Below are positions 9,008-59,214 of a stretch of 64,000 nt of DNA, piece after piece. Every line of letters starts with the position of its first letter. Within the stretch, counting starts at the first letter, position 1. A model generated the notes under the pieces. The model saw nothing but the letters and a program-made list of their open reading frames with translations, was not told the DNA's origin and did no database searches. This DNA comes from an uncultured Veillonellaceae bacterium (GTDB lineage: Bacteria; Bacillota; Negativicutes; Veillonellales; Veillonellaceae), in NCBI GenBank assembly GCA_945867815.1, contig CAMBIX010000001.1, forward strand, positions 372,001 through 436,000, given 5' to 3'. The translations under genes were made by a program, and so were the position numbers.

Positions 9008-9403
9008 AACACTTACTTGCGACTACACACTATAAATTGAATCCTAAGGTAAATTAACTTAATCTACACATTATACATTTTATTCATCAATTATTATAAC
9101 ACAAACAAACGTAGCGGACTACACCATTTCAGTACATACTTTTCTGTCAAAAGCTCTATGTTGCGAAGCGCCTTATACCTCTCACAGGTGACTACGCTAG
9201 TCAGGAGCCCTAGAGAAGTATAAGATGCTTCCGTTCACTGGCTTAATAAACATTGTCCGCTTCCGTACTCTGGAATTTTTCTAACATCAACTTAAATTCC
9301 ACGTCTAAAAAAACGTAGGCGCACGAAAGAAACGGTTACCACCAAGGCAGTAACCGTTTCCCTAATCATACATATACAATTAACAAGCTCTAGAAAGCAA
9401 AGC
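9008..9403. other. Intergenic region with complex inverted repeats
   Basis: This 396-base stretch between the pyrophosphatase start and the efflux pump end contains no credible gene. Nested inverted repeats are visible. AGCGGAC (9113-9119) pairs with GTCCGCT (9255-9261). Inside that, 9166-9183 pairs with 9213-9230 over 18 positions with one mismatch and some wobble. Inside that again is GACTA-gcg-TAGTC. This could be a structured RNA, an extragenic palindromic element or a mobile remnant. A terminator hairpin for the efflux operon follows at 9329-9360. Confidence 0.55.
9329..9360 (-). terminator. Terminator of the RND efflux operon
   Basis: Perfect 11-bp arms GAAACGGTTAC and GTAACCGTTTC with a 10-base loop, followed on the minus strand by TTTCTTT. 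It lies 44 bases after the stop of the pump gene. Confidence 0.7.
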
Positions 9404-56117: not shown

Positions 56118-56187
56118 AAAAAACGTCAACTATTCCTGTAGGCGACCTTCCGATAGGACTGAGCCGAAGGAATACGTTGACGTTTTT
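56118..56187. repeat. Hairpin repeat, type 1 copy 1
   Basis: AAAAACGTCAAC (56119-56130) pairs with GTTGACGTTTTT (56176-56187), with an inner ATTCCT/AGGAAT pair and a small hairpin TTCC-GATA-GGA in the loop. Flanked by A-runs and T-runs, it can terminate transcription on both strands: the MATE gene on plus and the thioesterase transcript on minus. A diverged copy is at 56850-56914. Confidence 0.8.
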
Positions 56188-56233
56188 CCCATTTGGAGTG
56201 AGCCCTGCCGATTGACTCTTTTTTGATATGATA

Positions 56234-56308
56234 AGAAGTGCACATTATCTTCCCGTTAAAGAGCCTTGCGATAGCACCAGTTCGTGAGGGAAGATAATGT
56301 GCACTTCT
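56234..56308. repeat. Hairpin repeat, type 2 copy A
   Basis: A perfect 21-bp stem (56234-56254 with 56288-56308) closes a 33-base loop beginning GTTAAAGAGCC and containing TGC-GATA-GCA. It begins 11 bases after the thioesterase stop. The same loop recurs at 56960-56992 and 58507-58538 with different but fully complementary stems. Confidence 0.85.
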
Positions 56309-56319
56309 ACTTTTTACTA

Positions 56320-56757
56320 TCAAAAAGGTAAATCTGGCAACGCGAACGGTTCTTTGACATAAAACGTTCCCCGTCCCATATACACTACCTCACCCAATTC
56401 ATTATACATACGGCACGTAACTACCATAGTATGTGACCCATTATGCTCCACATTAGCTACACCACGAATATCCGTACCGGCCTTAGCTGCTTTTATGTAA
56501 TTACCACTAATATCCAACGTTACAACAGCCTTGCCTAAAGTAAAACAAGACGTTCCCATTAAAGTATCAGAAAAGCCAACATATGTCGCCCCATGTAAAT
56601 CCCCTCGAAAATTTGCATGCCGCCCTTCCCGCGTATGAAAGACCATTTCCAAATGTCCAGGCTTCACAGCTGTAATCTCTTGATCCCTATCCCATTCAAA
56701 GGTATTTCTTTTACGCAAATCCGTAAAAAAATCCTTCATCGTTTTCATCCTATCCAT
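56320..56757 (-). CDS. Hotdog-fold thioesterase (PaaI-like)
   Basis: Probable acyl-CoA thioesterase of about 145 residues, with the hotdog signature FRGDLHGATYVGFSDTLMGTS and VVTLDISGNYIKAAKAGTDI. The first Met at 56757 has AGAAGGAG just upstream; the longer TTG form is unlikely. Substrate unknown. The gene is bracketed on both sides by the same pair of hairpin repeats, so it may have moved as a cassette or the repeats may be simple terminators. Confidence 0.82.
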   Translation of the reverse strand: MDRMKTMKDFFTDLRKRNTFEWDRDQEITAVKPGHLEMVFHTREGRHANFRGDLHGATYVGFSDTLMGTSCFTLGKAVVTLDISGNYIKAAKAGTDIRGVANVEHNGSHTMVVTCRMYNELGEVVYMGRGTFYVKEPFALPDLPF

Positions 56758-56849
56758 TAACGCTCCTTCTATTAGCAATCAACCCATCATTATATATTTA
56801 GTATACCATTTTTTATCTTCTTCCCTAGTCCCTTTGCCACTAGGTAAAG

Positions 56850-56914
56850 AAGCGTCAACTATTCCTGCAGGCAACCTTCCGATAAGACTAAGCTCAAGAA
56901 ATACATTGACGCTT
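56850..56914. repeat. Hairpin repeat, type 1 copy 2
   Basis: AAGCGTCAA (56850-56858) pairs with TTGACGCTT (56906-56914). The loop shares CTATTCCTG, AGGC, ACCTTCCGATA and GACT with copy 1. Compensating base changes keep the outer stem (AACGTCAA to AGCGTCAA with matching change on the other arm). Confidence 0.75.
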
Positions 56915-56939
56915 TTTTATATCACAGCCACCATGATAA

Positions 56940-57012
56940 AAAGTGTACATTATCTTCCCGTTAAAGAGCCTTGCGATAGCACCAGCTCGTGAGGGAAGAT
57001 AATGTACACTTT
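56940..57012. repeat. Hairpin repeat, type 2 copy B
   Basis: Perfect 20-bp stem (56940-56959 with 56993-57012). The loop differs from copy A at one position only, yet the stem has GTGTAC in place of GTGCAC on the left with the matching change on the right. It starts 22 bases after the aminotransferase stop. Confidence 0.85.
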
Positions 57013-57033
57013 CCACCAGTTATACAAATAAAT

Positions 57034-58275
57034 TTATTTAGATACGCTTTCAAGCGCCTTCTTTATCTTAGCGGCCAACCCCTTCATTTGCCGCTTAGAC
57101 ACACCACAAGCAGCGAGTCGCAATCCATGAGCTAAAGGAATAACATAAATATGTTCCTTCATAAGTTCCTCGCAAGCCTCGATGGCCTGTTCTGTAGGAA
57201 TCGTAATGAAGAATCCCCCACAATATGGCAAACAAGTCAATTCACAAGCCTCTGCTTCTTCCATAAAAATATGAGCCCGTTCTTCAATTAACTGTCCATA
57301 TTTCATCCGTTCTGTTTCATAGTCGGCCATCTTAGCTGGATTTTCTACGATATCCGCTACTGTCCGCATAGCCGGCCGGCAAATATTAGACCAAGTAGCC
57401 CGCGACGTTAAAGTATTAATTTCCTTAAACTCTTCATCAACCTCTTTATCAGAAGTCATAGAAATAAGGGCACCTACGCGCTGTCCATACATGGTAAAAC
57501 TCTTAGAAATACTATAGCAGGCTACAACTAGTATTTCTTTTGGCAGCTGACTAAACAATCTAAAAAACTTCCGAACGTCCGTCTTGGGCCCAGAATAATC
57601 AATATAGGCTACATCCACACCAATAATAACCTTATTTTTACCCTTTGCCACTAACTCTTTAGTAAAATTAACTACCTGCTGCCAGTCTTCATCCGTTAAA
57701 CTAAACCCTGTTGGATTATGCCCTGGTGTATTAATAATTACTAATATATTTTCCTGCTGCTTAGCCAAATCTAACATAGCCTGCTTAAAAGCATCAATAT
57801 TAAAAGTAAACTCATCAGTAAACAAGGAATACGTTACTAATTCACGATGATTATCTCGGCAAATCTGTTCATACGCTCCCCAATGCCAATCAGCCGTCAA
57901 AACCTTATCACCAGGATTTGTATAATTATGGACTAAATGATGAATACAGCCTGTCCCACCAGCCGTTGCTACTGCTGAAATATAAGCATCAGGCTTACAC
58001 CCATCTAGGCATTCATCAATGGCGGCTTCTAAAAACTCAGGCAACCCCGCAATAGGCGCATAAGCCGCATACTCTTGCCGAGGTAAATGTAAGTACTCCT
58101 CTTCTACAGCCTTTAGGAAAAGAATATCCCCGTTCTCATCATAAATAGCACCTAAAGTACCATTAACAACATTTTCCTTTCCTATCTTTTTCGCATCAGC
58201 CTGCGCCTTTGTATTATAAATAAAAATGCGATCATTGGCCTTCTTGCCACTTGCATGCGATGCTGCCATCCCCAT
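57034..58275 (-). CDS. Aminotransferase class I/II (aromatic/aspartate type)
   Basis: PLP enzyme of about 413 residues. Visible motifs: YAPIAGLPEFLEAA, TAGGTGCIHH, NTPGHNPTGFSLTDEDW, the Asp in VDVAYIDYSG and the PLP lysine in YSISKSFTMYGQRVGAL. These resemble aromatic-amino-acid aminotransferases of the aspartate aminotransferase Ia group. Start taken at ATG 58275 because GAGGAAGGGG lies 8 bases before it; ATG 58308 lacks a good site. A terminator repeat follows. Confidence 0.85.
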   Translation of the reverse strand: MGMAASHASGKKANDRIFIYNTKAQADAKKIGKENVVNGTLGAIYDENGDILFLKAVEEEYLHLPRQEYAAYAPIAGLPEFLEAAIDECLDGCKPDAYISAVATAGGTGCIHHLVHNYTNPGDKVLTADWHWGAYEQICRDNHRELVTYSLFTDEFTFNIDAFKQAMLDLAKQQENILVIINTPGHNPTGFSLTDEDWQQVVNFTKELVAKGKNKVIIGVDVAYIDYSGPKTDVRKFFRLFSQLPKEILVVACYSISKSFTMYGQRVGALISMTSDKEVDEEFKEINTLTSRATWSNICRPAMRTVADIVENPAKMADYETERMKYGQLIEERAHIFMEEAEACELTCLPYCGGFFITIPTEQAIEACEELMKEHIYVIPLAHGLRLAACGVSKRQMKGLAAKIKKALESVSK

Positions 58276-58308
58276 ACATAAAACCCCTTCCTCTAAAACA
58301 TTACTCAT

Positions 58309-58635
58309 CTAGTATCTATACTACCTAAAACCCAATAGGTAATCAAGGAAAAAGGCTTATACATACTGTATACATGCCCCCATTCAGACAAGGCCTCTAA
58401 GTCTCTACGCATTTTCATATCTCTCTATCCCCTTGGCACAATATCAAGAAGCGATATACCTTATACTAAGTAGCCATCAAAGCAAAAAAAAGAGCATATA
58501 CTTCCCGTTAAAGAGCCTTACGAAGTATCAGATCGCGAGGGAAGTATATGCTCCTTTTATTTATCTATGAGAAAGCGTATACCGCTTCCGTACCCTGTGC
58601 ACAAAACAACAGAGAAATATGAAATTCGTGCTGCC
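58309..58635. other. Intergenic region between outer-membrane protein and aminotransferase genes
   Basis: No credible gene in about 330 bases; a plus-strand frame from 58567 is a shadow of the outer-membrane gene. It contains the third copy of the type 2 hairpin repeat (58492-58553), which acts as a likely terminator for the outer-membrane protein, and the upstream region of the aminotransferase. Confidence 0.55.
58492..58553. repeat. Hairpin repeat, type 2 copy C (also terminator)
   Basis: Perfect 15-bp stem (58492-58506 with 58539-58553) with the shared loop GTTAAAGAGCCTTACGAAGTATCAG; here the small internal hairpin is TAC-GAA-GTA where copies A and B have TGC-GATA-GCA, a compensating change. 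The minus strand continues into eight T, the plus strand into TTTTATTT, so it fits a bidirectional terminator. Confidence 0.85.
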
Positions 58636-59214
58636 TTAGAACGAGTAACCTACACCCGCATGCAAGCCTCTAACCGACGTATCTTTGTCCGATACATTGT
58701 ATTTATCATACTGATAATACATATTCAAATCAACGTCTGGTGCCAAACCGTAAGACACACCCGCCTGATAGGTCTGCTTAACGTCATCACCAACGCCAAC
58801 CTTAGCATAGCCTTGTAACCGATCAGCAATTGGCATATAACCAATAACCCCGCCTTGTACACCAAAATCATGGTCGCCATAAGCTTTTACATAAGTGCCA
58901 GCACCATATAAATTAATATGAGGTGTTACGGCATAGGTAGCAGCAACTTGCTGATCTTTTAAATCTGTATGTTTCATATTAACCTTGCTGAAGCTATAGC
59001 CTACATTTAAGTTATTAGTTAATCCTGTATTTAAGGACGCACCATAACCATCTTCATTAGTACCATTCCCCTGGCTGCCATGCTGAGCAAAACTATATTC
59101 AGCAGCAACTGTGCTTTGACCTTGTCCAATAGTTGTTACTGGTACAGACGCCGCAAAAGCCGTTCCTGTCATAGCGGCCGTAACCATAGCTGTTAACAAT
59201 GCTAATTTCTTCAT
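58636..59214 (-). CDS. Outer-membrane beta-barrel protein
   Basis: The 192-residue protein has a signal peptide (MKKLALLTAMVTAAMTGTAFA, cleaved about residue 21) and a mature part of eight or so alternating strands, Gly/Tyr/Asn-rich and without Cys, ending in VGYSF with terminal Phe, the usual BAM signal. This is evidence of an outer membrane. Porin-like small barrel; ligand unknown. GAGGAGGAG ribosome binding site. It lies 50 bases after ftsZ on the same strand and may share its transcript. Confidence 0.85.
   Translation of the reverse strand: MKKLALLTAMVTAAMTGTAFAASVPVTTIGQGQSTVAAEYSFAQHGSQGNGTNEDGYGASLNTGLTNNLNVGYSFSKVNMKHTDLKDQQVAATYAVTPHINLYGAGTYVKAYGDHDFGVQGGVIGYMPIADRLQGYAKVGVGDDVKQTYQAGVSYGLAPDVDLNMYYQYDKYNVSDKDTSVRGLHAGVGYSF

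What the first reader, a model, noticed from the sequence alone, without database searches (positions are those of the whole stretch)
56234..58553. Three copies of a hairpin with conserved loop and covarying stem
Copies at 56234-56308, 56940-57012 and 58492-58553 share a 32-33 base loop beginning GTTAAAGAGCC, but their stems of 15-21 bp differ while staying perfectly complementary (GTGCAC/GTGTAC change on both arms; unrelated outer part in copy C). A small inner stem also covaries: TGC-GATA-GCA in two copies, TAC-GAA-GTA in the third. Each sits 11-83 bases after a minus-strand stop codon. Covariation argues for a selected RNA structure, beyond a plain terminator, which needs no loop sequence.
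Basis: seen in the sequence. Interest (0 to 1): 0.75.

Follow-up and report, generated by a model that had tools for sequence, protein, structure and literature searches.

The report
Capped terminator hairpins with swapping stems
The three hairpins belong to a large family of repeated terminator-like hairpins at the ends of genes in two related genera of Negativicutes bacteria, with a conserved structured tip on stems that differ from place to place yet stay paired, often inside a larger palindrome that holds a backward copy of the neighbouring gene's end.

Summary
The host genome has at least 75 matches (58 clusters), not three; two more, of a diverged type, lie in the window at 56118-56187 and 56847-56916. 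Sister genus g2 has 13-43 per genome, g3 and g4 only weak traces, and nothing else was found in 380 genomes of the class or in Rfam. Stem identity between loci is near chance beyond about 13 nt from the cap, yet about 90% of pairs are standard; cap helices covary too. 66 of 75 face the same way relative to the adjacent gene. In one-way contexts, stem mismatches favour G.U over A.C on the transcribed strand 25:7, as in ordinary terminators (73:14), but not between convergent genes (12:13). So they are most likely intrinsic terminators with a structured cap, dispersed as palindromic repeats. Unexpectedly, 11 of 50 isolated copies sit at the centre of a larger inverted repeat (0.5 expected; ordinary hairpins 0 of 80), usually holding an inverted copy of the neighbouring gene's last codons; some copies sit inside the apex of another. 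Fold-back copying is my preferred, unproven origin.

The parts
56234..56308 (-). Copy w1: 21-bp stem, cap type A, 3' of the 4HBT thioesterase-family gene 56320-56778(-)
   Evidence: (86.8 bits)
56940..57012 (-). Copy w2: 20-bp stem, cap type A, 3' of the aminotransferase gene 57034-58308(-)
   Evidence: (88.9 bits)
58492..58553 (-). Copy w3: 15-bp perfect core of a longer stem (58487-58558), cap type A variant, 3' of gene 58636-59214(-)
   Evidence: (81.7 bits)
56118..56187 (-).
   Evidence: 23.7 bits with a model that did not contain it; 51 bits, but that model's alignment includes it
56847..56916 (-). Second type-D member, partly degraded
   Evidence: (35.9 bits, E 5.5e-6)
56206..56233 (.). 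Far-side outer arm of w1: inverted, diverged copy of the coding end of gene 56320-56778
   Evidence: 20 of 24 positions match; 20 nt of coding sequence
56309..56339 (.). Gene-side outer arm of w1, including the stop codon and last codons of gene 56320-56778(-)
58413..58462 (.). Outer arm of w3; contains GGCACAATATCAAGAAGCGATATAC, resembling the conserved arm of type C/D copies
58572..58624 (.). Outer arm of w3 on the gene side; contains GTATACCGCTTCCGTACCCTGTGC

Best explanation
A lineage-specific family of dispersed palindromic repeats that lodge just downstream of genes and act there as intrinsic transcription terminators or 3'-end hairpins: one-way where the next gene runs the same way, two-way between convergent genes. 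Steps shown: family size, position and orientation, conserved cap with covarying P2 and P3, locus-specific but complementary stems, G.U bias on the transcribed strand in the host genome, larger inverted repeats that often contain the neighbouring gene's coding end, and nesting at hairpin apices. Steps inferred: (a) selection acts on pairing rather than sequence of the stem because the RNA hairpin terminates transcription or protects the 3' end; (b) arms are kept or made perfect by intrastrand template switching, in which a strand carrying the hairpin folds back and copies itself, sometimes running on into the gene and leaving an inverted copy of its last codons beyond the hairpin; (c) the cap is conserved because something, a protein or the copying process, recognises it.
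For: 75 matches in 58 clusters in one genome; 13-43 per genome in g2. Orientation 66 of 75, p about 8e-12, clusters not fully independent. Stem identity between loci for type A: 0.40 (3-8 nt from the cap), 0.33 (8-13), 0.36 (13-18) against 0.21-0.35 out of register. Covariation: 570 cells changed on both sides against 164 in shuffles; double changes in 3 of 4 P2 pairs and 2 of 3 P3 pairs; cap helices also in a MAFFT alignment not fitted to the structure. G.U versus A.C: codirectional 19:5, opposite-facing 2:6, convergent 12:13 (25:7 on the transcribed strand in one-way contexts, p 0.002), with ordinary terminators 73:14. Outer inverted repeats: 11 of 50 above the 99th percentile of cross pairs; controls 0 of 25 and 0 of 55. 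In 11 of the 13 best sites the arm includes 6-37 nt of coding sequence, while 1 of 50 ordinary terminator stems starts more than 10 nt inside a gene. All six g2 species carry the capped hairpin at the leuB 3' end, most with an inverted copy of leuB's last codons beyond it; that C-terminus aligns with those of other genera.
Against: The U-tract after the sense stem is modest (about 4 T in 8 nt for type A against 3.1 on the other side). In g2, stem mismatches are A.C on the sense strand 70:8, probably a few inherited positions, but opposite to the host-genome result. Pooled over contexts the strand bias is not significant. Nested copies at hairpin apices fit targeted insertion better than fold-back. 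No RNA data exist here, and genes were called as open reading frames, not annotated.
Confidence: 0.6

Rival explanations
1. Miniature mobile elements that insert into the apex of existing hairpins, so the outer palindrome is what remains of the target hairpin. The locus-specific stems would then be the target's.
For: Copies of one type sit inside the cap of another: E inside an A cap (L143), D inside a C-like cap (L114), A inside an older stem (C11:24057) and inside C/D-like arms (window w3). Types C, D and E share outer arms GGCACTATGTCACGAAGC...GCTTCCATACTCTGCG, and g2 copies have longer shared arms. From memory, EFAR repeats of Enterococcus faecalis use stem-loops as integration targets.
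Against: Ordinary terminators rarely reach into coding sequence (1 of 50), but the outer arms usually do (11 of 13); in one g2 locus three copies of a terminator arm exist rather than two (L105, L106). No transposase or target-site duplication was identified.
Confidence: 0.35
2. A purely DNA-level palindrome: complementarity is maintained only by template-switch correction during replication, with no function of the RNA.
For: Such correction is established in E. coli (PMC7202029). Pooled mismatches show no significant strand preference.
Against: In one-way contexts the bias follows transcription, 25:7; strong orientation bias; conserved cap with its own covariation.
Confidence: 0.15
3. A regulatory 3'-UTR RNA whose cap binds a lineage-specific protein or ligand that changes termination or mRNA stability.
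For: Cap sequence UGRUAC...GUWAGG is shared between g1 and g2 while its helix changes GAGC:GCUC to AAAC:GUUU. Terminators with conserved tips exist as riboswitches (HMP-PP, guanidine-IV; candidate HRC-8-4; PMC8632094).
Against: Adjacent genes seen in the window have no common function; caps come in several types that look interchangeable; no binding partner identified.
Confidence: 0.2
4. Ordinary terminator duplicated locally three times.
For: Copies w1 and w2 are 95% identical.
Against: At least 75 copies genome-wide and tens in six other species.
Confidence: 0.01

Closest known systems
Intrinsic (Rho-independent) terminators
   Same: 3' end of genes, stem often followed by T-rich DNA, G.U bias on the transcribed strand in one-way contexts, apparently bidirectional between convergent genes
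   Different: Long stem (mostly 15-27 bp), large conserved and covarying cap, dispersed homologous family, larger inverted repeats with coding ends
EFAR repeats of Enterococcus faecalis (Venditti et al. 2007; recalled, paper not in the held library)
   Same: Dispersed palindromic mosaic repeats associated with stem-loops, apparently lodged at hairpin apices
   Different: Different lineage; here stems are locus-specific and inverted copies of gene ends occur; not tested by alignment to EFAR sequences
Stem-loop sequence families of bacterial genomes (PMC1590033, PMC2267715) and REP elements (PMC3733652)
   Same: Intergenic repeated hairpins in tens of copies
   Different: Those families are defined by shared stem-loop sequence; here the cap is shared and the stem is not
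Terminator-embedded riboswitches such as HMP-PP, guanidine-IV and the candidate HRC-8-4 motif (PMC8632094)
   Same: Terminator stem with conserved nucleotides at the tip
   Different: Those riboswitches control downstream genes; these hairpins lie behind genes

Membership tests
Intrinsic terminator | Hairpin just downstream of a gene end | tested here: met
   66 of 75 have the gene 3' end facing the element on the expected side
Intrinsic terminator | U-tract after the stem | tested here: inconclusive
   Only moderate T enrichment; some copies have T5-T8, others little
Intrinsic terminator | Pairing selected on the transcribed strand | tested here: inconclusive
   Met in the host genome in one-way contexts, 25:7; opposite in g2
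Intrinsic terminator | Transcription actually ends there | not testable with these tools
   Needs term-seq
Known Rfam family | Match at the curated score | tested here: not met
   No family near its threshold in the window region; none in six further loci
EFAR-like miniature element | Insertion into stem-loops with remnants of the target stems at the ends (recalled) | tested here: inconclusive
   Nested copies and outer arms fit; no clean empty site seen
EFAR-like miniature element | Sequence homology to EFAR | not tested
   EFAR sequences were not compared
MITE | Terminal inverted repeats shared between copies | tested here: inconclusive
   Seen by eye for types C, D, E and g2 copies; type A and B stems are not shared between loci
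MITE | Target-site duplication and cognate transposase | not tested
   Not searched systematically
REP element | Stem sequence shared between copies | tested here: not met
   Stem identity between loci near background
REP element | GTAG or CGTC tag at one end | not tested
   Not examined
Terminator-embedded riboswitch | Position upstream of the regulated gene | tested here: not met
   Elements face the 3' ends of adjacent genes

The most novel reading that the evidence does not exclude
A self-templating class of mobile terminator: a conserved cap spreads through the genome and, at each new gene end, primes fold-back synthesis that writes a new, locus-specific, perfectly paired stem from local sequence and leaves an inverted copy of the host gene's last codons. 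That would be a repeat whose stem is copied from the target rather than carried by the element.
Probability: 0.2. Interest if true: 0.85.

Novelty: new variant of a known kind. Interest (0 to 1): 0.6.

Why it matters
It gives a set of 75-88 natural terminator-like hairpins in one genome with one conserved tip and many different stems, a ready test of what a terminator's loop can do. It is also a case where covariation, the usual proof of RNA structure, must be separated from DNA palindrome correction; the G.U versus A.C test by transcription context does part of this. If fold-back copying is right, it shows how bacteria can make new palindromic terminators from gene ends.

Tried and rejected
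Local duplication of an ordinary terminator: rejected by copy number. Known Rfam family: none. Integron attC-like site: considered by eye and dropped because the conserved part is the apex, not the ends. A UUCG tetraloop as RNA evidence in type C: dropped, the stem closes a UUC triloop equally well. Exact-cap scan of genome contigs found nothing, although that collection may leave out the host genome. Filled versus empty sites in g2: sites are too rearranged, with caps and stems exchanged at orthologous places, so insertion and fold-back could not be told apart. A possible separate capped terminator family in G011 (g3) proved to be four copies within about 400 bp. The source organism was not identified by name.

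Full report
Observation. The three hairpins are at the stated coordinates with perfect stems of 21, 20 and 15 bp and a shared cap. Two further hairpins of a diverged type D lie beside them at 56118-56187 and 56847-56916. The first scored 23.7 bits with a model that did not contain it; in the second model 56118-56187 is part of the training alignment, so its 51 bits there are partly by construction, while 56847-56916 scores 35.9 bits without having been included.

Family. The loop 13-mer occurs 19 times exactly and 22 times with one mismatch in the host genome, against one reversed control match. A covariance model from 18 copies gives 75 matches at E up to 1, in 58 clusters; the weakest may be remnants. 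A second model built from 85 aligned matches gives 88 in the host, 13-43 in each of six species of genus g2, 0-4 weak ones in g3 and 0-2 in g4. In 380 genomes of the class only g1, g2 and two g3 genomes match at E 0.001 (stricter filters). Rfam has no match. Reading the matches shows several cap types, which I call A, B, C, D and E.

Structure. Read on the gene-sense strand the type-A cap is UCGCGAGC-UGG-UAC-UAUC-GUA-AG-GCUC-UUUAAC between the arms. P2 (GAGC:GCUC) becomes GGAAGC:GCUUCC, GUGAGC:GCUCAC, GUAAGC:GCUUAC in the host and AAAC:GUUU in g2. In a MAFFT alignment not fitted to the structure, P2 and P3 pairs have 22 double-changed cells against 5.8 in shuffles. In the model-fitted alignment the whole structure has 570 against 164. 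These counts include shared ancestry and, lean towards the model.

Stems. Between loci the type-A stems are barely more alike in register than out of register, and not at all beyond about 13 nt from the cap. In g2 a block of the stem differs completely between copies whose caps and outer arms are otherwise similar, for example GACCGCAAC, GAGCACGGC, AGGCGTGGC and ACGAGCAAC, each with its complement on the other arm.

Position and strand. With gene calls from open reading frames, 66 of 75 copies have the same orientation relative to the adjacent gene whose 3' end faces them. As a test for RNA I compared G.U with A.C mismatches, all mismatches scored alike. Ordinary terminators give 73:14 when the next gene is codirectional and 15:4 when convergent. 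Capped elements of the host give 19:5 where both genes run in the sense direction, 2:6 where genes run the other way, and 12:13 between convergent genes. On the transcribed strand of one-way contexts this is 25:7, p 0.002; the cap helices show the same tendency with small numbers, 12:3. This fits a terminator read one way or both ways. In g2 the mismatches are 70 A.C to 8 G.U on the sense strand, apparently a few inherited positions, so the strand result does not generalise.

Larger inverted repeats. For 50 isolated copies, the flank on one side was aligned to the reverse complement of the other, leaving out the hairpin and 4 nt on either side. 11 exceed the 99th percentile of cross-site pairs (0.5 expected), 4 of 9 type-D copies likewise; ordinary hairpins give 0 of 25 in the host and 0 of 55 in a g4 genome. 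In 11 of the 13 best sites the gene-side arm includes coding sequence, up to 37 nt, including window copy w1. Ordinary terminator stems start more than 10 nt inside a gene in 1 of 50 cases. At leuB in g2 the last codons recur inverted beyond the hairpin, for example CATAGCGCACTTAGG in G013, and the protein end aligns with that of other genera, so the copy probably runs from gene to flank.

Nesting. A type-E copy lies in the P3 loop of a type-A cap (L143), a type-D copy inside a C-like cap (L114), and copies w3 and C11:24057 inside older arms. This favours insertion into apices. Fold-back copying better explains coding ends in the arms. Both may act; orthologous sites in g2 are too rearranged to decide.

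Conclusion. I file these as terminator-like, dispersed palindromic repeats with a structured cap: what they work like is an intrinsic terminator; what family they belong to is new. The function of the cap and the way the family spreads are inferred, not shown. EFAR is cited from memory.

Noticed in passing
L192, L193, L201, L202 (genomes G016 and G010, genus g2): Short genes for small hydrophobic peptides (Hol_Tox, PF16935; one at E 1e-7, one below the cut-off) lie in the same intergenic stretches as the g2 copies, with nearby inverted repeats, suggesting type I toxin-antitoxin modules.
   Followed up: partly
G011:C5:69689-70071 (L224, L238-L241): leuB of one g3 species ends in a capped hairpin whose cap GCCCTGCGTGGCTAAGGCG recurs four times within about 400 bp.
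   Followed up: yes
L201:4187 (G010) versus L192 (G016): At an orthologous site with closely matching flanks the two species carry hairpins with different cap and different stem, as if the whole hairpin had been swapped.
   Followed up: partly
   Followed up: partly
L159, L160, L161 (ends of host contigs C15, C16, C17): Type C/D/E-like repeats lie at or near three contig ends, so the assembly probably breaks at longer repeats beside them.
   Followed up: no
window 9165-9231: A further large-loop hairpin (GAAGCGCCTTATACCTCTC...GAGAAGTATAAGATGCTTC) resembles the type C/D arms with another cap.
   Followed up: no
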